Source of the DNA: Elusimicrobia bacterium GWC2_61_19
GTDB taxonomy: Bacteria > Elusimicrobiota > Elusimicrobia > Elusimicrobiales > UBA9959
Assembly: GCA_001799795.1 (NCBI GenBank)
Contig: MGUD01000001.1
Span: 12,558-46,017, forward strand
Length of the DNA: 33,460 nt
Direction: 5' to 3'
Positions 2,442-33,194 of the stretch are shown here, in pieces (position 1 is the stretch's first letter; every line of letters starts with the position of its first letter). The notes under the pieces were generated by a model. It saw only the letters and a list, made by a program, of their open reading frames with translations. It made no database searches and was not told where the DNA came from. A program made the translations under genes and the position numbers.

Positions 2442-4730
2442 ATGGCTCCCATCGTAAGAAAAAAAATACTGGTTAAAGGCGTGGTGCAGGGCGTCGGTTT
2501 CAGGCCCCATATCTACAAACTAGCCGCCGCGCACGCCCTGGCCGGCTGGGTCAAGAACGACGCGGCCGGCGTCACCATAGAGGCCGAAGGAAGTTCCTCC
2601 GGAGTTGAACGATTCATCCGCGAGATCACCCTTAAAAAACCGGCGGCCGCGCGGGTGGATTCCGTCCTGGTCAGCGCCTTGGCGCCCGCCGGAGAAAAGA
2701 CCTTCCTTATTTCCAAAAGCGGGGGGAAGGCGGCCGCCGCCGCCATTATCCCGGCGGACCTGGCGCTGTGCCGGGATTGCCTGCGGGACATGACCGATCC
2801 GGCCGACAGGCGTTACCTTTACCCGTTCACCAATTGCACCAATTGCGGCCCGCGTTTTACCATCGTTAAAAGCGTGCCTTATGACCGCCCCGCCACCACT
2901 ATGGCCGCCTTTAAAATGTGCCCGGCCTGCCGCGGCGAGTACGCCGACCCGCTGGACCGGCGTTTTCACGCCCAGCCCAACGCTTGCCCTGTCTGCGGGC
3001 CCGCCGTAAGGCTTGAGGCGGGGGGCCGCTCTTTCTCGGGCCTGCCGGCGCTCGAGAGAACCGCGCAGCTCCTTATTGCCGGCGGGATAGGCGCGCTGCA
3101 GAGTCTGGGCGGCTTCCACCTGGCCTGCCGGGCGGACAGCCCCGCTGCGCTCAGGAAGCTCCGGGCCGCAAAGCGGCGGCCTCACAAACCCTTTGCCGTC
3201 ATGGTGCCAACGCTGGCCGCCGCGCGCCGCCTCTGCCGCGTTTCGGCCATAGAGGCCGCCGCGCTCACTTCCTCCGAAGCCCCGGTGGTCATGCTGCGCA
3301 AGCGTGTGCCGGGTTCTTTCTCCGGCGCGGCCCCGGCCCTGGCCAAACTGGGCGTTATGCTGCCCTACACGCCCCTGCACGCCGCGCTCTTCCGCCTCCT
3401 GGAAGAAAAAGGTTTCACCGGGGCGCTGGTGATGACTTCGGGCAATTTCCGCGACGAGCCCATCTGCAAATCCCCGCAGGAGGTGCGCATAGCTCTGGGC
3501 GGGACGGCCTCCTTTACGCTCTGGCACGACAGGCCCATCCATAACAGGGTGGACGATTCCGTGGCCTTCGAGGCCGCCGGTGAACTGCGGCTTGCCCGTA
3601 GGGCGCGGGGCTACGTGCCGTCCGCGGTCAAGCTCTCCGCCTCCGGCGCAAGTGTGCTCGCCTGCGGCGCGGACCTTAAGAACACCTTCTGTCTTACCCG
3701 CGGCGCCGAGGCTTTCCTGTCGCAGCATATAGGGGACCTGTCCGAGCCGCTCAATCAGGAATATTTCAGGGAGACGCTGGTTAATTTCCGCCGCCTGCTC
3801 AAAGTCTCCCCCGGCGCGGTCGTCCATGACCTGCATCCGGATTACGCCTCTTCCGCTATCGCCCGCTCCCTGCCTGGCCGTAAGACCGCGGTGCAGCACC
3901 ATGCCGCGCACGCGCTCTCCGTGGCGGCGGAACACGGCCTGGAAGGCCCTTTTATCGGCCTGGCTTTCGACGGCACCGGTTACGGGACCGACGGGAAGAT
4001 CTGGGGTTCGGAATTCCTGGTCTTCAGGGATAGGACCTGGCGCCGGGGCGCGCACCTGAAATATTTTCGACTGCCGGGCGGCGACGCCGGCGCCTTCGAG
4101 ACCTGGCGCCCGGCCCTGGCCCTGGTCAGGGCGGCTTTCGGGGGGGGGTGGCGCGGCGCGGCCGTCCGGCTTTTCTCCGGCGTGCCCGCGGCTAAAACGC
4201 GCACAGCGGAACGTATGCTGGAGGCCGGGCTAAACTGCCCCGAGACCTCCAGCCTGGGCCGCCTGTTCGACGCTTTCAGTTTTATCTCCGGTGTCCGCGG
4301 AGAAAATACCTATGAAGCCCAGGGGCCGATGGAGCTCGAGTCACTTTATACGGGGCGAGGCGCCGCCTATCGTTTTGAAATATCCGAAGAAGGCGGCGGT
4401 TATATAATAGACCCCGCGCCGGCGCTGCGGGCCGCGGCGCGCGACAGGTTGTCCGGCAAACCGGCGGCGCGGATAGCCGACGGAGTCCATAAGGGCGCGG
4501 CGGCCATGGCCGTGGAAACGGCCGCCCGGCTTTCCGGGGATAACGGCATAAAGACTTTCTGTTTGTCAGGCGGCGTGTTCCAGAACCGGACGCTGCTGGA
4601 ACTTATCACGGCCGGGCTCGAACGCCGCGGTTTTAAGGTTTATGCCAACCGGCTGGTTCCCGCCAACGACGGCGGCCTGGCCCTGGGCCAGGCCTGGTAC
4701 GCGCTTAAAGGCTATAACCAAATGATGTGA
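2442..4730 (+). CDS. hypF: HypF, carbamoyltransferase of [NiFe]-hydrogenase maturation
   Basis: 762 residues from the ATG at 2442, close to the about 750 of E. coli HypF. It converts carbamoyl phosphate to carbamoyl-adenylate and passes the group to the C-terminal cysteine of HypE. Domains in order: acylphosphatase (about 5-90, VQGVGFRPH at 15-23); two zinc fingers with exact family spacing (C110/C113, C132/C135, C160/C163, C182/C185, that is CX2C-X18-CX2C-X24-CX2C-X18-CX2C); YrdC-like adenylation domain (about 200-390, with KRRPHKPFAVM and VMTSGNFRDEP); and the C-terminal Kae1-like domain with metal-binding HHAAH and AFDGTGYG. An in-frame start 150 bases upstream is possible but would run through the preceding gene and lacks the family N-terminus, so I chose 2442. 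A run of nine G at 4140-4148 encodes three glycines and leaves the frame intact. Last gene of the operon, ended by the hairpin at 4749-4774. Confidence 0.97.
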   Translation: MAPIVRKKILVKGVVQGVGFRPHIYKLAAAHALAGWVKNDAAGVTIEAEGSSSGVERFIREITLKKPAAARVDSVLVSALAPAGEKTFLISKSGGKAAAAAIIPADLALCRDCLRDMTDPADRRYLYPFTNCTNCGPRFTIVKSVPYDRPATTMAAFKMCPACRGEYADPLDRRFHAQPNACPVCGPAVRLEAGGRSFSGLPALERTAQLLIAGGIGALQSLGGFHLACRADSPAALRKLRAAKRRPHKPFAVMVPTLAAARRLCRVSAIEAAALTSSEAPVVMLRKRVPGSFSGAAPALAKLGVMLPYTPLHAALFRLLEEKGFTGALVMTSGNFRDEPICKSPQEVRIALGGTASFTLWHDRPIHNRVDDSVAFEAAGELRLARRARGYVPSAVKLSASGASVLACGADLKNTFCLTRGAEAFLSQHIGDLSEPLNQEYFRETLVNFRRLLKVSPGAVVHDLHPDYASSAIARSLPGRKTAVQHHAAHALSVAAEHGLEGPFIGLAFDGTGYGTDGKIWGSEFLVFRDRTWRRGAHLKYFRLPGGDAGAFETWRPALALVRAAFGGGWRGAAVRLFSGVPAAKTRTAERMLEAGLNCPETSSLGRLFDAFSFISGVRGENTYEAQGPMELESLYTGRGAAYRFEISEEGGGYIIDPAPALRAAARDRLSGKPAARIADGVHKGAAAMAVETAARLSGDNGIKTFCLSGGVFQNRTLLELITAGLERRGFKVYANRLVPANDGGLALGQAWYALKGYNQMM

Positions 4731-18417: not shown

Positions 18418-19359
18418 ATGAACGAGTATTGCGCTTTGGTCCTTGGGGTCGTATGTGCCGGCGTCGGAGGGGAGCTTTTTGTCCGCGGCGCGGTGGGCCT
18501 TGCGTCCTGGGCCCGGGTTTCTCCGGGGATCATCGGCGTAACCGTCGCCGCTTTCGCCACCTCGAGCCCCGAATTGTCCGTCGCGGTAAACGCGGCTCTG
18601 GCCGGGAAACCGCAGATAACCCTGGGCGACGCCCTGGGCAGCAATGTCGTGAATATCGCCCTGATCCTGGCCCTCGCTCTTGTGATCTCCGGGATCAAGA
18701 GCCCGCGTGACAGTATAAAACGGGATTTCCCCGTGGCCTTGCTGATCCCGCTGATCACGGGCGTTCTCTGCCTGGATGGCGAACTTTCCCGGTTCGACGG
18801 GGTAATGATGCTGGGGATGTTTTTCATCTGGCTCGCGGCGGTGATCATTGAGGTGCGAAGCCAGCGAAGCACTGTCGTGAAGGTTCTTGGCGCGCAGCGC
18901 GGGTGGCTGACCGTCCTTTCATGCGTGGCCGGCCTTGCCGCACTTGCCGCCGCCGGGAATCTTATCGTGGCGGGGGCAAGAGGTATCGCCATTTCCTTCG
19001 GCTTAGACGAATTCGTTATCGGGGCGACCATTGTGGCGGTGGGCACGTCCATGCCCGAACTCGCGACAACGCTTATCGCCAAGTTCCGGGGACACGATGA
19101 TGTGGGCCTGGGTACTATTTTAGGCAGCAATATTTACAACGGCATTTTCATCATCGCGGTCGCGGCCATTATCACTCCGATCCCGGTCGTTTGGCGCGAG
19201 GTGGCTACGGCGTTGGCGTTCGGTTTTGCGGCATTGGCGCTCACCTACCCCGCGCGCGACGGCTTTATCGGGCGCAGGCGCGGCGTATCGCTGCTGGCGC
19301 TATATGCGGTGTATCTGACCTTCATCTTAAAACACCGGGCAGGGTCCGGTTTAGGATAA
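18418..19359 (+). CDS. Na+/Ca2+-type cation exchanger (CaCA family, YrbG/CaxA-like)
   Basis: 313 residues and about ten hydrophobic spans in two inverted halves. Each half carries the alpha-repeat of the CaCA superfamily: first repeat at about 47-80 (ATSSPELSVAV, then GDALGSNVVNI), second at about 209-243 (GTSMPELATT, then GTILGSNIYNG). The glutamates in SPEL and MPEL and the GSN motifs are the ion-binding residues. It exchanges Ca2+ or another cation for Na+ or H+ across the inner membrane. ATG at 18418 is preceded by a close CGGAG site. Calcium specificity is the family default and not proven. The gene lies behind a terminator-bearing leader and 32 bases ahead of the trehalose operon. Confidence 0.9.
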   Translation: MNEYCALVLGVVCAGVGGELFVRGAVGLASWARVSPGIIGVTVAAFATSSPELSVAVNAALAGKPQITLGDALGSNVVNIALILALALVISGIKSPRDSIKRDFPVALLIPLITGVLCLDGELSRFDGVMMLGMFFIWLAAVIIEVRSQRSTVVKVLGAQRGWLTVLSCVAGLAALAAAGNLIVAGARGIAISFGLDEFVIGATIVAVGTSMPELATTLIAKFRGHDDVGLGTILGSNIYNGIFIIAVAAIITPIPVVWREVATALAFGFAALALTYPARDGFIGRRRGVSLLALYAVYLTFILKHRAGSGLG

Positions 19360-19391
19360 AACAAGGCCGTATTTAAAAGGGGCAAGTCTTT

Positions 19392-21647
19392 ATGCGTATA
19401 ACCTTCAAGCTTATAGTTTCGCTCATCGTGGTGGTGGTGTTCGTGGCCCTGGTTTCCGCCTGGTTCAACGTCAGGCAGGAAAAAGAAAAACTTTACGACG
19501 AGGTCCGCTCCCATTCCGCCCTGCTGGCTGAAAGCTTCAAGGAAAGCGTAAGGCATAACCTTGAAACAAAGAACCATGCCGGCCTGCAGAAACTGGCCGA
19601 TAAATTCCAGAACCAGAAGCAGCTGGAGGGCGTGGCGGTCTACGACGCGGACGGCGGCCTTGTCTCCGGTTCTTCCGCCCTGGCCCCGGACCTGCTCGCC
19701 CGCGCTACCGACATAAACGCGCTTATCGCGGCCGGGGACGGCGACGACCGGGTGTACGCGGTCGGGGGAAAAAAGATCTTCCTGTACCCGCTCACGCTGA
19801 CTTTCAACGAGAATGAAAAAGCGCGCATAGTCCTGTTCACCAATATTTCCTACATAGATTACGACCTCTTCAAGATCTGGAAGCGTACTCTTATCAGGCT
19901 GCTCGCGCAGATGGTCCTTATCTCGCTGGTGACGCTGCTGATAGTAAGGTGGAACCTGGTGGACCCCATAATCCAGATGGCCGAGTGGATGAAGAACCTC
20001 CGCATAGGCGACGCCCACGGCCACGCCCCGCCGGTAAAAGGCGACATCTTCGCGCCGCTGGCCAGGGAGGCGACCACGCTGGCCACCAACCTGCAGTCGG
20101 CCAGGCGCGCCGCGCAGAACGAAGCCCGCCTGCGCCAGAAAGGCGAATCCCTTTGGACCCCGGAAAGGCTGAAAGAGCATATTAAAATGAAACTGGGCGG
20201 GCGGCCGCTCTTCGTGGTCTCCAACCGCGAGCCCTACATGCATATTAAAGAGGGCAAAGACATCCGGGCCATCGTTCCCGCCGGCGGCCTGGTGACCGCG
20301 CTGGACCCCATTATGAAGGCCGCGGGCGGCACCTGGGTGGCGCACGGCAGCGGCGAAGCGGACTTCGAGGTTACCGACGCGGCTAACCGCATAAAAGTGC
20401 CGCCGGAAGAACCCGCCTACAACCTGCGCCGCGTCGCGCTCAGCAAAGAGGAGGAGGACGGCTACTACTACGGCTTCTCCAACGAAGGGATCTGGCCGCT
20501 CTGCCATATCGCCCATATCCGCCCCATCTTCAGGAAAGAGGACTGGAAGTACTACCGCGACGTGAACGAGAAGTTCGCCAAGGCCGTGCTGGAAGAGATA
20601 GCCGACGTCAAGGAACCCTGCGTGCTGATACAGGATTACCATTTTACGCTGCTGCCCAGCATGATAAAAGCCGCGCGCCCCGACGCCAGGGTGGCGGTAT
20701 TCTGGCATATTCCCTGGCCCAACCCGGAAACCTTCGGCATCTGCCCCTGGCAGAAAGAACTAGTGATGGGGCTGCTGGGCGCGGACCTCATCGGCTTCCA
20801 GACGCAGTTCTACTGCAATAATTTCCTGGATACCGTGGACCGCACCATAGAATCCCGCATCGACTGGGAGCATTTTTCCGTGCAGAAAGAAGGCCATATT
20901 ACCATGGTCAAGCCTTTCCCGATCAGCGTGGACTTCCAGCAGCCGGACCGGGACGCCAAGGCGCTGACGCAGAAGCCCGACCCCGCGGCCGTGCTGAAGG
21001 AACTGGGTATAAAGGCGGAAAAAATAGGCGTAGGGGTGGACCGCATCGATTATACCAAGGGCATGCTGGAAAGGGTGAAGGCCGTGGAGCGGTTCCTGGA
21101 GAAATACCCGGAGTACGTCAGGAAGTTCACCTTCATCCAGATCGGCGCGCCCAGCCGGACGCATATCCCGCAGTATCACAGGTTCCTGGCCGAGCTGCAC
21201 GCTGAGGTGGACCGGATAAACTGGAGGTTCAAGGCCAAGGACTGGAAAGCGATAGTCTTCCTGGAAAAACACCACGATCACAGGGAAATAACCAAGTATT
21301 ACAAGATCGCGGACGTCTGCCTGGTGACCTCGCTGCACGACGGCATGAACCTGGTGGCCAAGGAATTCGTGGCCGCCAGCGACGACCACCGGGGGGTGCT
21401 GGTCCTCAGCCGCTTCGCCGGGGCTTCGCGCGAGCTTAAAGACGCGCTGATAGTGAACCCCTACGACATAGAGCAGATGGCCGACGCCATCTACTATTCT
21501 CTCACCATGCCCAAAACGGAAGTGGAGGACCGGATGACACGCATGCGGCAGGACCTGCATGAGAATAACATCTACAAGTGGGCCGCCAACCTTACGGAAG
21601 AACTGATAAAACTCAGGATGGACGATTTTAAGCTTAACGGAGTATAG
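19392..21647 (+). CDS. otsA: Trehalose-6-phosphate synthase fused to an N-terminal membrane sensor/HAMP module
   Basis: 751 residues, against about 470 for E. coli OtsA. Residues 271-745 are a GT20 synthase that joins UDP- (or ADP-) glucose and glucose-6-phosphate. Motifs include [70 protein letters not shown] (sugar-phosphate binding Arg and Lys) and [16 protein letters not shown], so it looks catalytically intact. The first 270 residues are not part of any normal synthase: a membrane span (5-24), an extracytoplasmic domain of about 140 residues (30-165), a second span (166-187), a HAMP-like linker starting with [20 protein letters not shown] (187-240) and a short helical connector. This is the layout of sensor kinases and chemoreceptors. 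The start at 19392 follows AAAGGGG. The otsB gene begins at the very next base after its stop. Confidence 0.93.
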
Positions 21648-22508
21648 ATGAAGCCCTTTTGGAAGAACTCGGCCGCGGTCTCCGCCAGGCTGGCCGCCGC
21701 GCCCGGTCTGCTGGTAACGCTGGACTTCGACGGCACGCTGGCCGCGCTGGCGGAAACACCCGGGCAGGCCCGGCTCGAGCCGGAGTTCCGCGCCGCCCTG
21801 AAGGAACTGGCGGCGGCGCCCGGGGTTTGCGTTTTCATTCTCAGCGGGCGCGCTCTGCCCGGCGTGCGCCACCTGGTCGGCCTGCGCGGCCTTTACTACG
21901 GCGGCAACCACGGGATAGAGATAAAAGGCCCCGGCTTCGCCTGGTGCGACGCCGGCGCGCTGAAAACGCGCGGCCGGGTGGCAGGGATCGTCGCCGACAT
22001 GCAGGAAAGATTCCCGCCGGGCACGGGGGTGCTGGTGGAGAATAAGTTGTTTTCGGCCAGCGTCCATTACCGCAACCTTAAACCGGCCTTTAAGCACGGC
22101 TTTTTCAACCGGATGAGGAGTCTGATGGCCACCCGCGGCGCAGGCCTGCATTGGCGCGGCGGCCATAAGGTCTTCGAACTGCTGCCCCGGGGGGCCGCCC
22201 ACAAAGGTGACGCGGTAGGCCTGCTGGCAAAGCACCTGGGGGCCCCTTTGGGGATCGCCGTCGGGGACGACCTTACCGACGAGGATATGTTCAAGGCGCT
22301 CGCAGGGCGCGGGCTAACGGTCAGGGTGGGCCGGAAAGCCGGCTCAAAAGCCGGGTATTTCCTGTCCGGCCAGGGAGAAGTGCTGCGCCTGCTGCGCTTT
22401 ATCGCGGCGGCAAGGGACCGGGGGGGGAATGAGACCGACAGTTGTGGAGCCATTCAGATTCTGCACGCGCCTCACGCTCACGGAAGTAACCGGGCGCAAG
22501 GCGTTTAA
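21648..22508 (+). CDS. otsB: Trehalose-6-phosphate phosphatase, with an aberrant C-terminal end
   Basis: 286 residues. It removes phosphate from trehalose-6-phosphate, completing the OtsA/OtsB route. HAD phosphatase motifs: LDFDGTLAAL (nucleophile D26, acid D28), FILSGRALP, GNHGIEIKGPG, the cap domain, HKGDAVGLL and GDDLTDEDMF. The recognisable family sequence ends at about LRLLRFIAAARD near residue 257. A run of eight G (22420-22427) follows, and the last 26 or so residues are an unrelated tail read out of frame over the next gene, overlapping it by 80 bases. With nine G the gene would stop at TGA 22430-22432, making a standard ATGA overlap with the next start. The given sequence may therefore carry an indel, or the tract may vary. 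The essential domain is complete in either form. Confidence 0.92.
   Translation: MKPFWKNSAAVSARLAAAPGLLVTLDFDGTLAALAETPGQARLEPEFRAALKELAAAPGVCVFILSGRALPGVRHLVGLRGLYYGGNHGIEIKGPGFAWCDAGALKTRGRVAGIVADMQERFPPGTGVLVENKLFSASVHYRNLKPAFKHGFFNRMRSLMATRGAGLHWRGGHKVFELLPRGAAHKGDAVGLLAKHLGAPLGIAVGDDLTDEDMFKALAGRGLTVRVGRKAGSKAGYFLSGQGEVLRLLRFIAAARDRGGNETDSCGAIQILHAPHAHGSNRAQGV
22420..22427 (+). repeat. G8 homopolymer at the otsB/DUF5752 junction
   Basis: Eight consecutive G sit at the end of the conserved otsB region, one base before the next gene's ATG at 22429. One more G would put otsB in frame with a TGA overlapping that ATG. Tracts of this kind are prone to sequencing indels, replication slippage and transcriptional slippage. 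Confidence 0.9.
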
Positions 22509-23103
22509 CATAACCGAACTGCTTGACGGTATCAAGACGGCCGACGACGCCGTTATCTACCACCATACGCACCGGTTTATCAAGCAATCGCATCACCTGG
22601 TGCCGGAAGGCGCCAACGACTTCGCCTACTGGGTGACCAACACGGTGCAGGCGGACCGTCTGGGCGAGGAGCTCACCTCGATAGATATCGTGCGGTATAA
22701 TTCCCTGGCGGATATCCGCAGCGCCTTCGTGGAAATGCTGGAGCGCCACCTCTCCGAAAATCCCGGGCCGCAGCGCACCGTGGCCCCGGGCCGGGAATTC
22801 CATTTTATGCGCGCCATAAGGTTCTCGCTCCCCACCGACTGCGCGGCCGCGGATTACGCCTCCTTCATAGAGTGCCTGAAGAATGTAAGCGTCTCCAGTC
22901 TTTACCTGCACGTCTTCGAGGCCCGGCTCCGGCCTCCCTACGGCGTGGACGACTTTTCGCATTGGTTCAAGACCAATTTTGACGACGACAAGGTAGGCCG
23001 GGAGATCTCCCGCCTGGACCCTTATTCCTACACGCTCGAAAGCCTGAGGCAGAGAATAATCCGCGTTATAGAGCGCCGCCTCGCGGAGGTTAAGAATGCC
23101 TAA
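22429..23103 (+). CDS. DUF5752-like protein of the trehalose operon, function unknown
   Basis: 224 residues, soluble, no signal peptide. It looks like the DUF5752 family: an N-terminal EPFRFCTRLTL strand, GRKAFNITELLDGIK, the histidine-rich YHHTHRFIKQSHHL, DFAYWVTNTV and LTSIDIVRYNSLADIRSAF. The second half repeats similar themes (HFMRAIRF, SLYLHVFEARLRPP, DDFSHWFKTNF, EISRLDPYSYTLESLR), which suggests two related halves: a 'd(F)s.W' plus 'l..ldpy.y.leslR' pattern occurs in both. The family has, to my knowledge, no proven role but tends to be found beside trehalose and other glycosyltransferase genes. It begins inside the long-tail form of otsB and ends 8 bases into treT, with the treT ribosome binding site (GCGGAGG) inside it, so it is tightly coupled to both. 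Confidence 0.82.
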   Translation: MRPTVVEPFRFCTRLTLTEVTGRKAFNITELLDGIKTADDAVIYHHTHRFIKQSHHLVPEGANDFAYWVTNTVQADRLGEELTSIDIVRYNSLADIRSAFVEMLERHLSENPGPQRTVAPGREFHFMRAIRFSLPTDCAAADYASFIECLKNVSVSSLYLHVFEARLRPPYGVDDFSHWFKTNFDDDKVGREISRLDPYSYTLESLRQRIIRVIERRLAEVKNA

Positions 23104-24316
23104 GATAGAAGAATACGCGCCCGCGGCGGGCCGCAGCGCCATAGAAGAGCTGAAGATTATAGCCGCCCGGCTTAAAGGCAAGACCATCCTCAACGTCAAC
23201 TCCACGGCGGTAGGGGGCGGCGTGGCGGAGATACTCAGCCGCATGCTGCCCATGATGACGGAACTGGGCATAAAGCCGCGCTGGGAGCTTATCAAGGGCG
23301 GCGAGGATTTCTACGCCGTCACCAAGAAGTTCCATAACGCGCTGCACGGCACGCGCCAGGAACTGACCCCGGCCGATTTCCAGCTTTACCGCGACACGCT
23401 GAAGGCGAACATGGAGACCATCGACCTGGACGCGGACATAGCGCTGATCCACGACCCGCAGCCGGCCGGGCTGATAGATAAGAAACCGGCCGGGGCCAGG
23501 TGGGTCTGGCGCTGTCATATCGACCTTTCCAACCGCCAGTCCGACGTCTGGGACTTCCTGCACGGCTACGTGTCCCGCTACGACGCCGCGGTAATTTCAG
23601 CTCCGTCCTTCTCGCAGACGCTGCCTATAAAACAGTTCCAGGTACCGCCGTCCATCGACCCGCTGGCCGACAAGAACAAAGAGTTGTCCGACGCCGAGGT
23701 CTCTGATATAATGCGGCGGCTTGAGATCCCCCTGGATAAGCCGCTGATAACGCAGGTATCGCGTTTCGACAGGCTGAAAGACCCGCTGGGCGTGATAGAG
23801 GCGTTCAAAAAGATACAGCCTTACGTTACCGCCAGGCTGCTGCTGGTGGGCGGCAGCGCCGACGACGACCCCGAAGGTTCCCAAGTGCTGGCGGAAGTCC
23901 GCACGGCGGCCGAAGGCAACCCGGACATAATGGTGCTCTGCCTGCCCCCGACCAGCAATATCGAAATAAACGCCATACAGCGCGCCTCCACGATAATATT
24001 ACAGAAGTCGCTTAAGGAAGGTTTTGGTCTGACGGTTTCGGAAGCGCTGTGGAAAGGCAAGCCGGTGATAGCCGGCGCGGTGGGGGGCATCCCGTTACAG
24101 ATAACCCACAAATATTCGGGGATACTGACGCGCACTGTCGACGGTACCGCTTACTGGATGAAACGGCTGCTGCACGAACCGGCCTTTGCCGGGAAACTCG
24201 GCGAGAACGGCCGCGAGCACGTGCGCGAGAATTTCCTGCTGACCCGCCACCTGCGCGACTACCTGCTGCTCGCGCTCTACCTGGAAAGCGGCAAGCGGGA
24301 CTTTATCCACCTGTAA
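23096..24316 (+). CDS. treT: TreT-type trehalose synthase (GT4 glycosyltransferase)
   Basis: 406 residues, the size of TreT enzymes, which make trehalose directly from NDP-glucose and free glucose, reversibly in some organisms. The N-terminal part has ILNVNSTAVGGGVAEILSRM and the following LPMMTELGIKPRWELIKGGEDF, typical of TreT and related trehalose phosphorylases. The C-terminal Rossmann half has ITQVSRFDRLKDPLGVIEAF, LLLVGGSADDDPEG, and the EX7E-type LKEGFGLTVSEALWKGKPVI (retaining GT4 donor site). ATG at 23096 overlaps the previous gene by 8 bases. With otsA and otsB in the same operon the cell has two distinct trehalose routes. A trehalose phosphorylase activity is the main alternative. 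Confidence 0.9.
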   Translation: MPKIEEYAPAAGRSAIEELKIIAARLKGKTILNVNSTAVGGGVAEILSRMLPMMTELGIKPRWELIKGGEDFYAVTKKFHNALHGTRQELTPADFQLYRDTLKANMETIDLDADIALIHDPQPAGLIDKKPAGARWVWRCHIDLSNRQSDVWDFLHGYVSRYDAAVISAPSFSQTLPIKQFQVPPSIDPLADKNKELSDAEVSDIMRRLEIPLDKPLITQVSRFDRLKDPLGVIEAFKKIQPYVTARLLLVGGSADDDPEGSQVLAEVRTAAEGNPDIMVLCLPPTSNIEINAIQRASTIILQKSLKEGFGLTVSEALWKGKPVIAGAVGGIPLQITHKYSGILTRTVDGTAYWMKRLLHEPAFAGKLGENGREHVRENFLLTRHLRDYLLLALYLESGKRDFIHL

Positions 24317-24419: not shown

Positions 24420-27400
24420 ATGTTTCTGCGATTTATTAAACACGGCCTTCCGGCCTTAAAGAAGCGTCTGGCCCGGCTCCTTCCGGCCGCCGAAATAGCC
24501 GACGAACAGCCCCTCAGGGCCGAGCTTTTCAATATCGACCAGTTCAAGCTGCACGCCGCCGGCATGGCCGCCAGGCACAGCGTAAGCTTTAAAAGGGGCA
24601 GGGAAAAGCTGCTGTCCCGCCTCAGGGAGAACGAGGGGATAATCCTCAGGGCTTATAAACTGCTCAACCAGTCCGGCAGCGACAAGAGAAGGATCTCTCC
24701 CGCCGGCGACTGGCTGCTGGATAATTACTATCTTATCGAGGAGCAGATACGCCTGGCGCAGAAATTCCTGCCGAAAGGCTACAGCAGGGAATTGCCGAAT
24801 CTGACCGGGGGCCCGCTGGCCGGCTATCCCAGGGTTTACGACATCGCCATGGAAATAGTTTCCCACGGCGACGGACGGCTGGATATAAAAGGCCTTGCCG
24901 GTTTCGTGTCCGCTTATCAGGAGATAAAACACCTGAAATTGGGTGAATTGTGGGCCGTCCCCATAATGATACGCCTGGCCCTGATAGAAAATCTCAGGCG
25001 CATCGCTTCCCGCCTTATCGTGGCACAACTCGACCGCGACGCCGCCGATTACCGCGCCAACAGGATCCTGGAGGTGCTGGCCAAGGACACCAGCGGCGTG
25101 ATCCTGGAGATAGCGTCGATGGCGAAGCTCGATCTGCCGATGTCGGATTCTTTCGTGGCCGAGTTCGTAAGACAGCTGCACGGGCAAAGCCCCGCTTTCA
25201 ACCTCCCTATCGTCTGGCTGGAAAAGAAACTGGCCGAGAACGGCAAGACCATCGAGCGGCTCATCCAGTCGGCCACCCGCAAACAGGCGGCAAGCCAGGT
25301 CTCGATCTCAAATACCATAGAGAGTCTGCGCTTCCTGGAAGTTACAGATTGGCACGACTTCGTGGAAAACCTGAGCGTCGCGGAAAAGGAACTGCGGAGG
25401 GACCCCTCCGGTCATTACGTCCGGATGTCTTTCGCCACGCGCGACAGCTACCGTCACGCGGTGGAAGACCTGGCGCTGCGCAGCCGGCAGGAGGAAGAGG
25501 TGGTGGCGGCGCGGGTGGTGCGGGCGGCTCAGGCTAAAGCCTCCGAAGGCCGCGGCGCGGCGGCGCACATCGGTTACTACCTCGTCGACAAGGGGTTGCC
25601 GGAGTTCTGCCGCTCCCTCGGGCTCCGGCTGCGGTTCGGGGATTATCTGGCGGCAAAAAGGACTTCGCCGGTCCTTATCGCCTACACGGGTTCCATTTTC
25701 ATTTTCACGCTCGCCGCCGCGGCGGGCGTCCTCCTGCTGGCCTGGGAACACGGGCTCAGGGGCTGGCCGTGGTTCGCCGCGTTCGGGGTCCCGCTCCTTT
25801 TTCTCACCAGCCAGGCGGCTATCAGCTTGGTTAACTGGTTCTTCACGCGCAGCGTGGAGCCCAAAAAACTGCCCAGGATGGATTTTTCGGAGGGGATCCC
25901 CGCGCACGCGCATACACTTACGGCGATCCCGACCATGCTGACCGGGAGCGGGGCCGTAGAAGCCCTTATCGAGGGCATCGAGGTCTGCTACCTGGGCAAT
26001 ATCGACGCCAATGTGGAGTTCGCGCTGCTGACGGATTTTTGCGACGCCGACCGGGAGACCATGCCCGGCGACGCGCAACTGCTGGCGCAGGCCTGCGAGG
26101 GCATAGAGAGGCTGAATAATAAATACCGCGCGCATAAAGAAAATACCTTTTATCTGTTCCACAGGCCGCGCCGGTGGAATGACAGGGAAAAGATCTGGAT
26201 GGGCTACGAGCGCAAGAGGGGGAAGCTTTCAGACCTGAACGCCCTGCTCCGCGGGAGGGGGCAAGACCGGTTCAGCACTATCGTCGGTGACCCGGAGCGG
26301 CTGCGGGACGTGAAATACGTGATAACCCTGGATACGGACACCCGGATGCCCAGGGACGCGGCGAGGGACCTGGCGGGGATAATAGACCACCCTCTGAACC
26401 GGCCGGTATACGACGAGAAGAAGCGCCGCGTCGTCTCCGGGTACGGTATCCTGCAGCCCAGGGTGGACCTCGGCTACCCCGGCGACAATCCCTCCCTGTT
26501 CATTAGGATCTTCGGGGGCGAGGCCGGCATAGACCCGTATACGAAGACGGTGTCGGACATCTACCAGGACCTTTTTCACGAAGGCTCGTTCATCGGCAAG
26601 GGGCTTTATGACGTGGACGCCTTTGAAAGGTGCCTCGGCGGGCGCTGGCCGGAGAACCTGGTGCTGAGCCACGACCTGCTGGAAGGCTGCTACGCCCGGT
26701 CCGCCCTGGTCACCGACGTGCAGCTGTACGAAAAATATCCCTCCGGCTACCTTGCGGACGCCAACCGCCGGCACCGCTGGATCCGCGGCGACTGGCAGAT
26801 CTCCGGCTGGCTGCTGCCTTTCGTCCCCGGGCCCGGGCGGCGGGAAAAAAACCCGCTCTCCTTTCTGTCCAAATGGAAGATCTTGGACAACCTGCGGCGC
26901 AGCGCGGTTCCAGCCGCCGCCGCGCTGCTGCTGTTCTCCGGCCTGGTCTATTTCGAACACCAGTGGTTCTGGCCCGCGGTAGTCATGGTTATATACGGGT
27001 TCCCCTCGCTGTTCTTCTCGTTCGTGGAGACGGCGGCTAAAAGCCGGGATATCACGCCGAAGGCCCACTTTACTTCGGCGGTTTATTCGCTGGGCCTGCG
27101 CGGCGTTCAGTTCGGCCTCTCGCTCGCGTTCCTGGTGCACGAGGCCTTCTACGGCCTTCACGCCATCGCCGTAACGTTCTGGCGCATGCTGCTTTCGCGC
27201 CGCCGCCTGCTGGAATGGCGGACCTCGGGAGAAGCGGAGCAGCAGTCAGCCAGGAGCGTGCCGGAGTATGCCAAAGGCATGCCCTCCGGTCCCCTGGCCG
27301 CGCTTTCTTTTGTGGCCTTGCTGAGCGCCGCGGGCAGGCGGCCGGACGCCCTGACCGCGGTATTCTGCGGGCTGTGGCTGCTGTCCCCGGCCATCGCCTA

Positions 27401-30400
27401 CTTCATAAGCCGGCCGCTTTTCTCCCGTAAGGCCGCCCTGTCCGGCGCCCGGACCATGTTTCTCCGGAGCCTGGCGCGCAAGACCTGGGGCTTTTTCGAG
27501 ACCTTCGTGACCGAGCGGGATAACTGGCTGCCGCCGGATAATTTTCAGGAGGAGTTCCTCGGCGTAGTGGCCCACAGGACTTCCCCCACGAATATGGGCC
27601 TCTCGCTGCTGTCCAACCTGGCGGCTTACGATTTCGGTTACGTCTCCATGGGGGCGCTGTTCAACAGGACCGAGAAAACGCTTAAAACTATGAGCGGTAT
27701 GGAAAAATACCGGGGCCATTTTTACAACTGGTACGATACGGAATCCCTGAGGCCCCTGAAGCCGCTTTATATCTCTTCGGTAGACAGCGGGAACATGGCC
27801 GGGCACCTGCTGGTATTGCGCTCTGGCCTGCTGGAGATGGCTGGCGGCAAGGTAGTCTCGCCAAAAGTATTCGACGGCCTGGCGGATACCCTGTCCGTGC
27901 TGCAGGAATGCGCCGCCGAGCTGGAGAGAAGCAAAATAAGCGGCGCGGGGGCGGCCGCGCGGAAATTAGCGGATCAGGCGGCGCAGCTCGGGAAAAAATT
28001 AAAGCCCGCTCCGGATTCGGCCGCGGAAATGCACGCGCTGCTGCGCCGGCTGTCGGCGGAAAGTTCCCGGACGCTTTCCGGGCTCGAAGGAAAGCACTTC
28101 GACCGGACCAGGAAGTGGCTGGGCGCTTTTGAGCGGCAGTGCTATGACTGGCTCGAGGACATGGCGTTTATCGCGCCGTGGCTGCTGCTGCCACCGGAGA
28201 TCCCCGGCATGTGGGACAGGGGGGACGAGGGACAGCGGTCCCGGCTCTCCGGGCTGCGCCGGGAATTGCAGCGCCTGGACACCATCCCCTCCCTCTCCCA
28301 GGCGGCCAGGCTTGAACAGAAGCTTTTTCCGCTGATCGACGGGATAACCGCCAATTTAGGTTCTTCAGGCCCCGACGCCGCCAGGGAAAGGGACTGGCTC
28401 GCCCGGCTGAGGGCCGCGGTAAAAGAGACGGGGGACAGGGCGAGCGAAAGGATAGCCGCCATAGAGTCCATGGCGCTGCGCTGCGGCGAGCTGTCCGCGG
28501 TGGAATTCGAATTCCTGTACGACAAGGGCGCGCACCTCCTTTCTATAGGTTATAACGTCTCCGAGCGCAGGGTGGACCCGGGCTGCTACGACCTCCTGGC
28601 GTCCGAATCCCGGCTCTGCAGTTTCGTGGCCATCGCCCAGGGAAAGCTTCCTCAGAAACACTGGTTCATGCTCGGCCGTCTGCTTTCCAAGTACGGCGGC
28701 GACCCGGTGCTGGTGTCGTGGGGCGGGTCGATGTTCGAATACCTCATGCCCCTGCTGGTAATGCCGGTCTATGAAGGCACCCTGCTGGAGCTGACCTACA
28801 AAGCGATGATCGCGTGCCAGATAAAATACGCTTCCGATAATAATATCCCGTGGGGCATGTCCGAATCCGGCTATAACAAGCTGGACGCCGCACTGGCGTA
28901 CCAGTACCGCTCTTTCGGCGTCCCGGACATCGGCTTTAAACGGGGGCTTTCCGAAGACCTGGTCGTGGCGCCTTACGCCGCCGCCCTGGCCCTCATGGTG
29001 GAGCCGGCCAAGGCCTGCGCCAATCTGGAGCGCCTCGGCGCGGAAGGTTTCCAGGGGGAATACGGGTTTTACGAGGCGGTGGATTATACCCCCTCGCGGG
29101 CGGACCACGACGGCCTCCGCGCCGTGGTCAGGTCCTACATGGCGCATCACCAGGGCATGAGCCTGCTGTCCCTGGCTTATGTGCTGCAGGACAGGCCCAT
29201 GCAGAGGCGCTTCCTGGCCGACCCGATGTTCAAGGCCACGGAACTGCTGCTGCAGGAAAGGGTCCCGAAGGCCGTGCCGTTCCTTTACGATACCGAGGTC
29301 ACCGGGCTGCTCAGGAAGACCGAGGAGAGCGACGCCCTTTCGCGCGTTTTCACCACGCCCGACACCCCGGCGCCCGAAACGCACCTTCTCTCCAACGGCA
29401 GCTATAACCTGATGGTGACCAATTCCGGGGCGGGCTACACCCGCTGGAAGGATGTTGCGGTAACGCGGTGGCATGAGGACGCCGTGCTCGAGGGCGAGGG
29501 CACTTTCATCTACCTGCGCGATACCGTGAGCGGGGAGTTCTGGTCTTCGACGTACCAGCCGACCCTGAAAAGATCCGCTAAGTACGAAGCCATCTTCTCG
29601 CGGTCCCGGGCCGAGTACCGGCGCAGGGACCACAAGATCGACGTGCATACCGAGATAGCGGTTTCGCCCGAGGACAACATCGACCTGCGCAGGATAAATA
29701 TCCGGAACCTTTCGCGCGAGACCAGGGTCATAGAGCTGACCAGTTACGCCGAAGTGGTCCTGAACGCGCCGGCGGCGGACCTGTTCCACCGGGCTTTCAG
29801 CAATCTTTTCGTGCAGACGGAAATAGTCAGGTCCCACCAGGCGATAATCTGCAGCAGGCGGCCGCGGTCCGAAAAGGAGAAATTCCCTTTCCTGGCGCAT
29901 TTCATGGCCGTGCACGGCAACGCCGTAGTCGGCGCCGCCTACGAGACCGACCGCGACAAATTCATCGGCCGGGGCAACACCCTCGCCGCCCCCGCCGCCA
30001 TGCATGGCGGGAGTCTTTCCGACAGCGAAGGCCCGGTGCTCGATCCCATAGTTTCCATCCGCTGCACGATCAGGCTCCAGCCCGGCGAAGAGGCGGTGAT
30101 CGATTATGTCACCGGCGTAAGCGACAGCCGGGCCGCCGCCATGACGCTTATAGAAAAGTACCGGGACCGCAACCTGGCCGACAGGGTTTTCGACCTGGCC
30201 TGGACGCACGGCCAGGTGGCGCTGCAGCAGATCAACGCCACGGAATCCGACGCCCAGGTGTACGGCCGCCTGGCCAGCGCCATCATTTACGCCAACCCCG
30301 AGTGGCGGGCGCACGCCAGCGTTCTGCGGCAGAACCGGAGGGGCCAGACCGACCTGTGGGGCTACGGCATTTCGGGTGACCTGCCTATAGTGCTTGTCCG

Positions 30401-33194
30401 CATTGAGGACCAGGAGAATATAGGGTTGATAGCGCGGATGGTGCAGGCCCACTCTTACTGGCGCATGAAAGGCCTGCCGGTGGACCTGGTCATCTGGAAC
30501 GAGAACAGCTCCGTTTACCGCGACGAGCTGAGTGAAAAGATAAACGACCTGGTGTCGGCTAACGCCAAGCTGCTGTCGGACCGCGGCGGCAGGATCTTTT
30601 CGCGGCGCGCGGACCAGATGTCCGAAGAAGACAAGATCCTCATGCTGACCGTGGCCAGGATAGTGATTACCGACAGGGGCGGCACGTTAAGCGAACACCT
30701 GGACCGCATAGCGCGGCTGGCGGCGCCACGCCTGCTCTCCGCTGCGGCCAGGCTGGCCGTGCCGGATGTGGCGGCGCGGGCGCCCGCGCGGCGCCCCGAC
30801 CTGGTATACTTTAACGGCCTGGGCGGCTTCACTAGCGATGGGCGTGAATACGTGATCTCGACCGGACCGGCGAAGTTTACGCCCGCCCCCTGGGTGAACG
30901 TGATCGCCAACCGGCATTTCGGCACCATCATTTCCGAGAGCGGCAGCGCCTATACGTGGAGCGAGAACGCGCAGCAGTTCCGCCTTACCCCGTGGAAGAA
31001 CGACCCGGTCACGGACGCCTCCGGTGAGGCTCTGTACGTGCGCGACGAAGAGACGGGCCGCTTCTGGTCGCCGACGCCGCTGCCGGCGGGACGGGGCGGT
31101 TATGTTTCGCGCCATGGTTTCGGCTACACCGTCTTCGAGCATGAGGAGGACGGCGTCGCTACGGAGTTAACGGTCTTCGTTCCGCTGGACCACCCGGTAA
31201 AATTCGCCGTTTTAAAGATCCGCAACGCTTCCGGGCGCAAAAGAAGCCTGTCGGCCACTTCGTACAACGAGCTGGCGATGGGCACGCTCAGGGACAGCGC
31301 CCACATGCATATCCTCACTGAGGTGGACCCTAAGAGCGGCGCACTGACCGCCTATAACCATTACAACAAGGAGTTCCCGGGCAGAGTTGTTTTTCTCGAC
31401 GTAAGCGAAACGGCGCGTCTCGTAAGCGGCGACAGGCGGGAATTCATAGGCCGCAACGGCACCCTGGCCGCCCCCGCCGCGATGCGCGGCGAAGCGCTCT
31501 CGGGCAAAACGGGGGCCGGCTTCGACCCGTGCGCCGCCATGCAGGTGAAATTCGAACTGGAAGACAACGAGGAAAAAGAAATAGTCTTCACCCTGGGCGC
31601 CGCAAAAAGCGCCGACGAAGCGCGCGGGATACTGCAGCGGTTCAGCGGGGCCGCCTCGGTGCGCGACGAGCTTAAAAACGTCTGGGAATACTGGAAGCGC
31701 GCGCTAGGCGTGGTCTACGTGGAAACCCCGGACAACTCGGTCAATTTCCTGGTCAACGGCTGGCTGCAGTACCAGGTGCTCAGCTGCCGCCTGTGGGGAC
31801 GCAGCGGCTATTACCAGTCCGGCGGCGCGTACGGCTTCCGGGACCAGCTGCAGGACGTTATGTCGCTGACGCATTCCCACCCCGGGATCATAAGGGAACA
31901 ACTGCTGGCTTTCGCCGCGCGCCAGTTCCCCGAAGGGGACGTGCAGCACTGGTGGCATCCGCCCTCGGGCCGCGGGACCCGCAGCCACTGCTCCGACGAT
32001 TACCTCTGGCTGCCCCTCGTCGCGTGCCTTTACGTGGAGGAGATCGGCGACACCGGCGTGCTCGATGAGCCGGTGGGTTTCCTGGACGGCCCTCCAGTAA
32101 AGCCGGAAGAGGAATCCTATTATGACCTGCCGAAGCAGGCGGGTAAGTCCGGGACCCTGTACGAGCATTGCGTCCTGGCCGTGAAGCACGCGCTCAAGTT
32201 CGGCGTCCATGGCCTCCCCCTGATGGGCAGCGGCGACTGGAACGACGGCATGAACCTGGTGGGGCGCGAGGGCAAGGGCGAAAGCGTCTGGCTGGCGTTC
32301 TTCCTGTGCCATGTCCTCAGGTCCATGGCCGTCCTGGCCGCCGGCCGCGGCGACAAGGACTTTTCGGAACTGTGCCTGGAAGAAGCCGGCAAATTGTCGC
32401 GCAATATAGAAATCTCGTCGTGGGATGGCCAGTGGTATAAGAGGGCCTACTTCGACAGCGGGGAAGCCCTCGGCTCCGCGTCCAATACGGAATGCCGTAT
32501 AGATTTGCTGCCGCAGTCCTGGGCTGTTATCTCCGGCGCGGCCGACAAAGGGCGGGCCGCGGCGGCCATGGAGCAGGTGGACCGGCGGCTCGTGGACAGG
32601 AAGGAATCGCTGATAAAGCTCTTCGAGCCCCCGTTCGATAAATGCGCCAGCGATCCGGGCTACATAAAGGGCTACCTTCCGGGGGTAAGGGAGAACGGCG
32701 GGCAGTATACCCACGCCGCCGTCTGGTCGGTTATCGCTTTCGCGATGCTGAAGGACAGCAAGCGCGCGTGGGAACTGCTGGGCCTTATCAACCCGGTCCG
32801 CCACGCCGCTACGCCCGAAAAATGCGCCGTTTATAAGGTGGAGCCTTTCGTCATGCCCGGCGACGTCTACGCCGGCGGTCCTAATGCCGGGCGCGGCGGC
32901 TGGACCTGGTACAGCGGCTCCGCTTCGTGGATGTACCAGCTCATAGTCAGGCATTTGCTCGGCATCAGGCTGAGGGTAGACAGACTTTACTTCGAACCGT
33001 GCCTGCCCCAAGAGTGGCGGTCGTTCAAGGTCCATTACCGGTACAGGGAGACTTTTTACCACATAAATATAGAACGGTCCGGGCCGGCGGATAAAGTGGT
33101 TTCGGTCGTAGTGGACGGGACGGAGCGTGAGGACAGGACCATCCCTCTCGCCGACGACAGGGCGGAGCACAGCGCGGAAGTCAGGATCGGATAA
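24420..33194 (+). CDS. ndvB: Cyclic beta-1,2-glucan synthase (NdvB/Cgs; GT84 plus GH94)
   Basis: 2924 residues, close to the about 2830-2870 of the Rhizobium and Brucella enzymes. It makes periplasmic cyclic glucans from UDP-glucose, which act in osmotic adaptation and host interaction. Order: cytoplasmic N-terminus with the typical WLLDNYYLIEEQIRLAQ (about 98-114); membrane spans at about 417-440 and 446-470; GT84 glucosyltransferase with VITLDTDTRMP (D638, D640) and HRWIRGDWQ (785-793); several more spans at about 825-1000; a glycoamylase-like domain of about 1050-1575 (HRTSPTNMGLSLLS, MSESGYN, HHQGMSLLSL); then two GH94 N-terminal-like beta domains, each with a FIGR..TLAAPAAM motif (near 1848 and 2342), and the GH94 phosphorylase-type domain with GDWNDGMN (catalytic D2609) that sets ring length. 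The ATG at 24420 has a CCGGAG site. It stands alone; no ndvA-type exporter follows. Confidence 0.96.
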   Translation: MFLRFIKHGLPALKKRLARLLPAAEIADEQPLRAELFNIDQFKLHAAGMAARHSVSFKRGREKLLSRLRENEGIILRAYKLLNQSGSDKRRISPAGDWLLDNYYLIEEQIRLAQKFLPKGYSRELPNLTGGPLAGYPRVYDIAMEIVSHGDGRLDIKGLAGFVSAYQEIKHLKLGELWAVPIMIRLALIENLRRIASRLIVAQLDRDAADYRANRILEVLAKDTSGVILEIASMAKLDLPMSDSFVAEFVRQLHGQSPAFNLPIVWLEKKLAENGKTIERLIQSATRKQAASQVSISNTIESLRFLEVTDWHDFVENLSVAEKELRRDPSGHYVRMSFATRDSYRHAVEDLALRSRQEEEVVAARVVRAAQAKASEGRGAAAHIGYYLVDKGLPEFCRSLGLRLRFGDYLAAKRTSPVLIAYTGSIFIFTLAAAAGVLLLAWEHGLRGWPWFAAFGVPLLFLTSQAAISLVNWFFTRSVEPKKLPRMDFSEGIPAHAHTLTAIPTMLTGSGAVEALIEGIEVCYLGNIDANVEFALLTDFCDADRETMPGDAQLLAQACEGIERLNNKYRAHKENTFYLFHRPRRWNDREKIWMGYERKRGKLSDLNALLRGRGQDRFSTIVGDPERLRDVKYVITLDTDTRMPRDAARDLAGIIDHPLNRPVYDEKKRRVVSGYGILQPRVDLGYPGDNPSLFIRIFGGEAGIDPYTKTVSDIYQDLFHEGSFIGKGLYDVDAFERCLGGRWPENLVLSHDLLEGCYARSALVTDVQLYEKYPSGYLADANRRHRWIRGDWQISGWLLPFVPGPGRREKNPLSFLSKWKILDNLRRSAVPAAAALLLFSGLVYFEHQWFWPAVVMVIYGFPSLFFSFVETAAKSRDITPKAHFTSAVYSLGLRGVQFGLSLAFLVHEAFYGLHAIAVTFWRMLLSRRRLLEWRTSGEAEQQSARSVPEYAKGMPSGPLAALSFVALLSAAGRRPDALTAVFCGLWLLSPAIAYFISRPLFSRKAALSGARTMFLRSLARKTWGFFETFVTERDNWLPPDNFQEEFLGVVAHRTSPTNMGLSLLSNLAAYDFGYVSMGALFNRTEKTLKTMSGMEKYRGHFYNWYDTESLRPLKPLYISSVDSGNMAGHLLVLRSGLLEMAGGKVVSPKVFDGLADTLSVLQECAAELERSKISGAGAAARKLADQAAQLGKKLKPAPDSAAEMHALLRRLSAESSRTLSGLEGKHFDRTRKWLGAFERQCYDWLEDMAFIAPWLLLPPEIPGMWDRGDEGQRSRLSGLRRELQRLDTIPSLSQAARLEQKLFPLIDGITANLGSSGPDAARERDWLARLRAAVKETGDRASERIAAIESMALRCGELSAVEFEFLYDKGAHLLSIGYNVSERRVDPGCYDLLASESRLCSFVAIAQGKLPQKHWFMLGRLLSKYGGDPVLVSWGGSMFEYLMPLLVMPVYEGTLLELTYKAMIACQIKYASDNNIPWGMSESGYNKLDAALAYQYRSFGVPDIGFKRGLSEDLVVAPYAAALALMVEPAKACANLERLGAEGFQGEYGFYEAVDYTPSRADHDGLRAVVRSYMAHHQGMSLLSLAYVLQDRPMQRRFLADPMFKATELLLQERVPKAVPFLYDTEVTGLLRKTEESDALSRVFTTPDTPAPETHLLSNGSYNLMVTNSGAGYTRWKDVAVTRWHEDAVLEGEGTFIYLRDTVSGEFWSSTYQPTLKRSAKYEAIFSRSRAEYRRRDHKIDVHTEIAVSPEDNIDLRRINIRNLSRETRVIELTSYAEVVLNAPAADLFHRAFSNLFVQTEIVRSHQAIICSRRPRSEKEKFPFLAHFMAVHGNAVVGAAYETDRDKFIGRGNTLAAPAAMHGGSLSDSEGPVLDPIVSIRCTIRLQPGEEAVIDYVTGVSDSRAAAMTLIEKYRDRNLADRVFDLAWTHGQVALQQINATESDAQVYGRLASAIIYANPEWRAHASVLRQNRRGQTDLWGYGISGDLPIVLVRIEDQENIGLIARMVQAHSYWRMKGLPVDLVIWNENSSVYRDELSEKINDLVSANAKLLSDRGGRIFSRRADQMSEEDKILMLTVARIVITDRGGTLSEHLDRIARLAAPRLLSAAARLAVPDVAARAPARRPDLVYFNGLGGFTSDGREYVISTGPAKFTPAPWVNVIANRHFGTIISESGSAYTWSENAQQFRLTPWKNDPVTDASGEALYVRDEETGRFWSPTPLPAGRGGYVSRHGFGYTVFEHEEDGVATELTVFVPLDHPVKFAVLKIRNASGRKRSLSATSYNELAMGTLRDSAHMHILTEVDPKSGALTAYNHYNKEFPGRVVFLDVSETARLVSGDRREFIGRNGTLAAPAAMRGEALSGKTGAGFDPCAAMQVKFELEDNEEKEIVFTLGAAKSADEARGILQRFSGAASVRDELKNVWEYWKRALGVVYVETPDNSVNFLVNGWLQYQVLSCRLWGRSGYYQSGGAYGFRDQLQDVMSLTHSHPGIIREQLLAFAARQFPEGDVQHWWHPPSGRGTRSHCSDDYLWLPLVACLYVEEIGDTGVLDEPVGFLDGPPVKPEEESYYDLPKQAGKSGTLYEHCVLAVKHALKFGVHGLPLMGSGDWNDGMNLVGREGKGESVWLAFFLCHVLRSMAVLAAGRGDKDFSELCLEEAGKLSRNIEISSWDGQWYKRAYFDSGEALGSASNTECRIDLLPQSWAVISGAADKGRAAAAMEQVDRRLVDRKESLIKLFEPPFDKCASDPGYIKGYLPGVRENGGQYTHAAVWSVIAFAMLKDSKRAWELLGLINPVRHAATPEKCAVYKVEPFVMPGDVYAGGPNAGRGGWTWYSGSASWMYQLIVRHLLGIRLRVDRLYFEPCLPQEWRSFKVHYRYRETFYHINIERSGPADKVVSVVVDGTEREDRTIPLADDRAEHSAEVRIG

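What the first reader, a model, noticed from the sequence alone, without database searches (positions are those of the whole stretch)
19392..21647. Trehalose-6-phosphate synthase wired to a membrane sensor and HAMP-like linker
The synthase domain occupies residues 271-745. Before it lie a membrane span, an extracytoplasmic domain of about 140 residues, a second span and a HAMP-like linker with a helical connector, which is the input half of a sensor kinase or chemoreceptor. The enzyme looks catalytically complete. The simplest reading is a one-protein osmosensor or envelope sensor whose output is trehalose synthesis rather than phosphorylation. HAMP-GT20 fusions may exist in databases as annotations, but I know of no experimental description.
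Basis: partly seen in the sequence, partly recalled or inferred. Interest (0 to 1): 0.72.

Follow-up and report, generated by a model that had tools for sequence, protein, structure and literature searches.

The report
Trehalose synthase with built-in membrane sensor
Here an enzyme that starts making the stress sugar trehalose is fused in one protein to the receptor half of a bacterial environment sensor, and this fusion is kept across many species of three bacterial groups, so the cell may set the enzyme directly from outside without the usual relay of kinases and gene switches.

Summary
Window 19392-21647 (+), from an Elusimicrobiota genome, encodes one 751-residue protein. It reads: membrane span, single-Cache (WalK-type) sensor domain, second span, divergent HAMP, short coil, complete GT20 trehalose-6-phosphate synthase. 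Single-sequence Pfam finds no HAMP. However, profile-profile comparison (94%, P 1e-7; shuffled controls at most 0.3%), fold comparison (residues 1-270 on WalK, Z 15.4) and family profiles (WalK and KinD sensors, sCache_3) agree. All catalytic residues checked against E. coli OtsA are kept, except Trp40, whose match is ambiguous. The sensor part is under purifying selection, and the ribosome site lies at the upstream ATG.

The fusion is not private. Full-length copies occur in 57 of 295 Elusimicrobiota genomes and in two further 'Deltaproteobacteria' phyla. All fall in one clade (support 100/98). Inside it some copies have lost the Cache domain but kept a membrane anchor. The synthase heads a conserved TPS-TPP-DUF5752-TreT operon. 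In related genomes that operon also carries a histidine kinase with a homologous input half, or an MscS or ClC channel.

Best reading: a one-protein transmembrane receptor whose output is trehalose-6-phosphate synthesis. The signal, and whether it changes activity, are untested. No paper in the held library describes it.

The parts
19377..19382 (+). Shine-Dalgarno-like AAGGGG, 9 nt before the ATG
   Evidence: sequence around the start; purine-rich sites precede the homologous ATG in most relatives
19392..21647 (+). sensor-fused trehalose-6-phosphate synthase, 751 aa
19398..19472 (+). membrane span 1 (residues 3-27)
   Evidence: hydropathy; helix 2-58 in AF2
19476..19871 (+). extracytoplasmic single Cache domain, WalK type (about residues 29-160)
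   Evidence: profile hits to 5is1/4ywz/4jgq, sCache_3_2, Foldseek and VIA matches
19884..19961 (+). membrane span 2 (about residues 165-190)
   Evidence: hydropathy; helix 153-204 in AF2
19938..20099 (+). divergent HAMP domain (residues 183-236); invariant W199 and E226
   Evidence: hhalign 94.3%, P 1e-7, shuffled controls at most 0.3%; helix-connector-helix 153-204/221-254; invariant columns
20100..20153 (+). coiled connector (residues 237-254)
   Evidence: AF2 helix 221-254 with lower confidence near 244-256
20154..20177 (+). W-TPERLKE junction helix (residues 255-262), shared with the soluble sister synthases
   Evidence: W255 and L260 invariant in 59 sequences; soluble relatives begin at this motif
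20202..21626 (+). GT20 trehalose-6-phosphate synthase domain (residues 271-745)
   Evidence: Pfam E 1.5e-118; VIA Z about 35 to solved TPS; substrate residues R279 G299 Y359 W368 D415 H439 R551 K556 R589 D650 L654 E658
21648..22508 (+). trehalose-6-phosphate phosphatase (OtsB type)
   Evidence: PF02358 E 9.2e-31; TIGR00685 over cut-off
22429..23103 (+). DUF5752 protein, conserved operon member of unknown function
   Evidence: PF19027 E 3e-59; TPS-TPP-DUF5752-TreT order conserved
23096..24316 (+). TreT-type trehalose synthase (GT4)
   Evidence: PF21269 E 1.6e-52; NF041139 E 1.5e-106, below its cut-off

Best explanation
The protein is a single-polypeptide transmembrane receptor whose output is a metabolic enzyme. 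A WalK-type single Cache domain outside the membrane and/or the spans themselves detect a change at the envelope, most likely osmotic or cell-wall stress. The change passes through span 2, a divergent HAMP and a short coil into the invariant W255 helix that abuts the N-terminal beta strand of the GT20 domain, and this raises or lowers trehalose-6-phosphate synthesis. The neighbouring phosphatase then yields trehalose. Shown: the domain order, its single translation, its conservation, the intact active-site residues, the common origin of the fusion, and the operon. Inferred: that it works as a dimer, that the signal alters activity, the direction of the effect, and the nature of the signal.
For: Cache plus HAMP identity by several routes. 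Catalytic residues kept in 64-65 of 65 homologues (residue list from PMC1769515). N-terminal half under purifying selection. Fusion kept in one clade across Elusimicrobiota and two further groups, support 100/98. Operon with TPP, DUF5752 and TreT. In genus g13 the synthase is soluble and, in two genomes (L075, L076), the next gene is a histidine kinase whose span-Cache-span-HAMP half aligns to the synthase's input half over residues 1-253. Homologues of that kinase also lie in trehalose loci of the window's own genus: L041 (directly after TPP), L042, L044, L051, L056, L061. Operons with an MscS (L088) or ClC channel (L090) between TPS and TPP point to osmotic physiology; T. tenax has an experimentally studied msc-gt-tpsp operon (PMC3634074).
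Against: No biochemical data. The Cache domain is the fastest-changing part (mean entropy 2.45 against 1.21 for GT20) and has no strongly conserved pocket residue. Five sampled paralogues inside the clade (L081, L083-L086) keep a membrane anchor but have lost the Cache domain. Single-sequence Pfam does not see the HAMP. The full-length model has low confidence at the coil-to-enzyme junction, residues 244-256, and no dimer could be modelled.
Confidence: 0.58

Rival explanations
1. Membrane tether and scaffold: the N-terminal half only holds the synthase (and perhaps a TPS-TPP-TreT complex) at the membrane as a dimer; the Cache domain is a borrowed dimerisation or anchoring module without signalling.
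For: Paralogues in the same clade have lost the Cache domain but keep two spans plus HAMP (L081, L084), one span plus HAMP (L083, L085), or one span plus coil (L086). The Cache domain evolves fast without a conserved pocket.
Against: The Cache fold and HAMP are kept over three phyla under purifying selection. The sampled sensorless copies are all in Elusimicrobiota and at least two are second paralogues beside a full-length copy in the same genome (G217, G236). In sister genera the same type of input half drives a histidine kinase in the same operon.
Confidence: 0.27
2. The sensor receives a chemical ligand (for example a wall fragment, ion or small acid, as WalK, PhoQ and CitA relatives do) and trehalose answers something other than osmolarity, such as desiccation, wall damage or carbon supply.
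For: The nearest folds are ligand-binding Cache domains of WalK, KinD, DctB, CitA and chemoreceptors.
Against: No conserved pocket residue over the family. Neighbouring osmotic genes (MscS, ClC) in some relatives favour osmotic roles.
Confidence: 0.1
3. The sensor part is not joined to the enzyme in the cell: translation starts near codon 265 or a protease separates the halves.
For: An ATG exists at codon 266; soluble relatives of the family exist.
Against: Ribosome site at codon 1, none comparable at codon 266. Codons 1-264 under purifying selection in frame. A start at 266 would remove the invariant W255..L260 helix, at which soluble relatives begin.
Confidence: 0.04

Closest known systems
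E. coli OtsA and other GT20 trehalose-6-phosphate synthases (1GZ5, 1UQU, 5JIJ, 5HUT)
   Same: GT20 fold (VIA Z about 33-35, about 31% identity to OtsA) and UDP-glucose and glucose-6-phosphate residues
   Different: OtsA is a 474-residue protein without membrane or sensor part; this protein carries 270 extra N-terminal residues and belongs to a distant clade
WalK (YycG) histidine kinase input half
   Same: span-Cache-span-HAMP topology; residues 1-270 superpose on WalK 8-299 (Z 15.4); Cache on S. aureus WalK crystal 4ywz (Z 13.6)
   Different: WalK continues into a histidine kinase; here the output is a sugar synthase and there is no kinase
Thermoproteus tenax msc-gt-tpsp trehalose complex (PMC3634074)
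   Same: trehalose synthase regulated at protein level and linked genetically to a mechanosensitive channel and a second glycosyltransferase
   Different: regulation there is by a partner glycosyltransferase; TPSP is described as a TPS-TPP fusion, with no Cache or HAMP input mentioned in the passages read
Cache receptors surveyed by Upadhyay et al. 2016 (PMC4822843)
   Same: extracytoplasmic Cache between two spans
   Different: their outputs are chemotaxis, kinase, cyclic-di-GMP, phosphatase, cyclase, Ser/Thr kinase, transcription or ion-channel modules; no biosynthetic enzyme is listed
Geobacter sulfurreducens GSU2337 trehalose-6-phosphate synthase (PMC2700814)
   Same: described only as 'containing a domain' like the mycobacterial enzyme, next to the phosphatase GSU2336; possibly the same architecture
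   Different: its domain structure was not tested here and the passages found give no sensor region

Membership tests
GT20 trehalose-6-phosphate synthase | GT20 domain over its full length | tested here: met
   PF00982 positions 4-471/473, E 1.5e-118
GT20 trehalose-6-phosphate synthase | OtsA substrate residues Arg9, Gly22, Tyr76, Trp85, Asp130, His154, Arg262, Lys267, Arg300, Asp361, Glu369 | tested here: met
   all identical at the aligned positions, 64-65 of 65 homologues; lists from PMC1769515 and PMC3441724
GT20 trehalose-6-phosphate synthase | OtsA Trp40 | tested here: inconclusive
   numbering of this loop is ambiguous: OtsA has W at 38 and 41 by this count; W315 pairs with W38
GT20 trehalose-6-phosphate synthase | makes trehalose-6-phosphate from UDP-glucose and glucose-6-phosphate | not testable with these tools
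   enzyme assay needed; the TPP gene lies directly downstream
GT20 trehalose-6-phosphate synthase | NCBIfam OtsA equivalog cut-off | tested here: not met
   448.5 bits against 564.85: a divergent GT20 clade, not an OtsA orthologue by that rule
HAMP domain | Pfam HAMP gathering score | tested here: not met
   no hit in the protein or in 21 members; 3/59 members, best E 0.0066
HAMP domain | homology to genuine HAMPs directly after a membrane span, helix-connector-helix | tested here: met
   hhalign 94.3%, P 1e-7, controls at most 0.3%; AF2 helices 153-204 and 221-254
single Cache (sCache) sensor domain | Cache fold between two spans | tested here: met
   sCache_3_2 in 11/59 members, best 1.8e-5
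single Cache (sCache) sensor domain | Pfam match in the protein itself | tested here: not met
   only SMP_2 at E 0.0051, below cut-off; SMP_2 is counted among Cache families in PMC4822843
signal-transducing transmembrane receptor | input changes output activity | not testable with these tools

The most novel reading that the evidence does not exclude
A widespread, undescribed class of receptor enzymes in which a Cache-HAMP transmembrane receptor switches a compatible-solute synthase directly, bypassing phosphorylation, second messengers and transcription.
Probability: 0.5. Interest if true: 0.85.

Novelty: new variant of a known kind. Interest (0 to 1): 0.66.

Why it matters
The Cache survey checked here reports only signalling modules as outputs: kinases, cyclases, chemotaxis units and the like (PMC4822843). 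A Cache-HAMP receptor joined to a biosynthetic glycosyltransferase, kept over long evolution, would mean that bacteria can control osmolyte synthesis directly from outside the membrane. It gives a compact system for testing how HAMP signals move into an unrelated enzyme. Part of the group may lie in culturable Geobacter (GSU2337, not checked here), so the idea could be tested in living cells.

Tried and rejected
Pfam HAMP on the protein and on relatives: negative or very weak, which alone would have refuted the HAMP claim, so profile-profile and fold tests with controls were used. The VIA search with the full-length model was filled by the GT20 domain, so residues 1-270 were folded and searched alone. 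The 1284-residue ORF L093 (1397-residue open frame) is a read-through of upstream sequence in a GC-rich genome, with the true start at MKITLRL. Copies whose BLAST match began at residue 143-226 in one Desulfobacterota-like group first looked like sensor swaps; reading them showed the same span-sensor-span-HAMP layout with a divergent sensor. Similarity of the input half to many histidine kinases in the genome search (E 1e-4 to 1e-9) is generic and was not used as evidence on its own. A calcium/sodium exchanger lies just upstream in the window but is found in only 4 of the compared loci and was not used. No paper on Cache- or HAMP-linked trehalose synthases was found; the library lacks most subscription journals.

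Full report
WHAT IS THERE. The window lies in an Elusimicrobiota genome; named relatives at 85-92% identity are Elusimicrobia MAGs. ORF 19392-21647 (+) encodes 751 residues. Residues 274-738 match GT20 over almost the whole model (E 1.5e-118) and superpose on solved trehalose-6-phosphate synthases with Z about 33-35. Against E. coli OtsA (fetched), R9, G22, Y76, W85, D130, H154, R262, K267, R300, D361, L365 and E369 are identical at the aligned positions and kept in 64-65 of 65 homologues. The residue lists come from PMC1769515 and PMC3441724; W40 is ambiguous in numbering.

THE INPUT HALF. Two hydrophobic spans (3-27 and about 165-190) enclose about 140 residues. The AF2 model of residues 1-270, built on 59 diverse relatives, has pLDDT 78. 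It shows a long helix, a small mixed alpha/beta domain, a second long helix running through the membrane to residue 204, a connector, and a helix 221-254. Foldseek's best PDB matches are the WalK integrative model (E 1.3e-9) and the S. aureus WalK extracellular domain (E 6.6e-6). VIA gives Z 15.4 over 262 residues to WalK and 13.6 (2.8 A, 134 residues) to 4ywz, and nearly all further rows are sensor domains of kinases and chemoreceptors. By sequence, the family profile finds WalK 5is1 (E 1.3e-3) and KinD (4e-3) among solved structures, and 11 of 59 members match sCache_3_2 (best 1.8e-5).

HAMP. Pfam HAMP misses this protein and reaches only E 0.0066 in 3 of 59 relatives. A profile-profile comparison with 28 genuine HAMPs from related genomes aligns residues 183-236 at 94.3%, P 1e-7. 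Twenty column-shuffled controls gave at most 0.3%, and other parts of the protein at most 0.2%. I therefore call it a divergent HAMP. W199 and E226 in it, and W255 and L260 in the junction helix, are invariant in 59 sequences.

ONE POLYPEPTIDE. AAGGGG precedes the ATG at 19392 by 9 nt; the internal ATG at codon 266 has no comparable site and would cut the conserved junction helix. dN/dS is 0.07-0.23 for the sensor, 0.05-0.08 for span 2 plus HAMP and 0.03-0.06 for GT20 in four pairs.

DISTRIBUTION AND ORIGIN. Full-length matches (query start <=11, end >=735, counted by hand) occur in 57 of 295 Elusimicrobiota genomes, 17 of 345 genomes of the phylum of the MAG SURF_52 (plus 12 more with a divergent sensor but the same layout) and 10 of 46 genomes of the phylum of RIFCSPHIGHO2_02_FULL_40_28. 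These last two carry the NCBI label 'Deltaproteobacteria'; GTDB names were not available, and Desulfobacterota and UBA10199 are my guesses. In a careful tree of 77 GT20 domains all 46 sensor-fused and five anchor-only proteins, plus one soluble protein that keeps half a HAMP (L139), form one clade with support 100/98; the neighbouring branches are soluble synthases (quick tree). So the fusion most likely arose once. Some copies later lost the Cache domain while keeping two spans plus HAMP (L081, L084), one span plus HAMP (L083, L085) or one span plus coil (L086).

NEIGHBOURHOOD. The order TPS-TPP-DUF5752-TreT is kept across the loci, including soluble sister synthases and an Omnitrophota genome (L060). 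In genus g13 the synthase is soluble, and in two genomes the next gene is a histidine kinase (HisKA, HATPase). Its span-sensor-span-HAMP half aligns with the synthase's input half over residues 1-253 at 80% and 63%; of nine control HAMP kinases one reaches 53% and the rest stay under 5%. Homologues of this kinase (28-33% in the input half, 45-48% in the kinase half) also lie in the trehalose loci of six relatives of the window: L041, L042, L044, L051, L056 and L061; in L041 it directly follows TPP. In G113 an MscS channel and in G062 a ClC channel sits between TPS and TPP. Thermoproteus tenax has an msc-gt-tpsp operon in which the synthase needs a partner for activity, with a proposed osmotic role (PMC3634074).

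INTERPRETATION. The input halves of two different outputs (a kinase and a synthase) being homologous and co-located in one operon type, together with long conservation of the fusion, favours real signalling. The loss of the Cache domain in some paralogues, the lack of a conserved pocket and the absence of any assay keep the tether reading open. I give the receptor reading 0.58 and the tether 0.27. The signal is unknown: osmotic or envelope stress is suggested by the product and by the neighbours, not shown.

NOVELTY. Both halves are known kinds; their union is, as far as the held open-access library shows, undescribed. The 2016 Cache survey lists only signalling outputs (PMC4822843), though it began from proteins with such outputs, so it could not have found this one. 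Database entries with this architecture may exist under a plain 'trehalose-6-phosphate synthase' label; GSU2337 of Geobacter is a candidate (PMC2700814) that I could not check.

Noticed in passing
24420-33194 (+): 2924-residue protein with Glycoamylase and GH94 domains, laid out like cyclic beta-1,2-glucan synthases, 103 bp after TreT; among the compared loci only L048 also has it next to the trehalose operon.
   Followed up: partly
22429-23103 (+): DUF5752 is a constant member of the trehalose operon in three or more phyla, nearly always beside TreT; a functional partner of TreT or TPP is likely.
   Followed up: partly
L078:2352-2912, L079 about 2590-3132, L080:3106-3684: Stand-alone two-span proteins of 186-192 aa made only of a close relative of the synthase's Cache domain, without HAMP or enzyme, in varied neighbourhoods (next to a histidine kinase in L078).
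   Followed up: partly
L041:11034-12416 and homologues in L042, L044, L051, L056, L061, L075, L076: Sensor histidine kinase with a WalK-like input half inside the trehalose locus of related genomes, absent from the window's own operon.
   Followed up: yes
18418-19359 (+): Calcium/sodium exchanger ends 32 bp before the synthase; a homologue also lies upstream of the synthase in L034, L038, L041 and L209.
   Followed up: partly
L083, L086: The sensorless but anchored synthase paralogues lie just downstream of genes that look like TreS (maltose/trehalose glucosyl mutase).
   Followed up: no
L087-L089: The sensor-fused synthases of Elusimicrobiota families f16, f21 and f26 branch near the base of the fused clade.
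   Followed up: no
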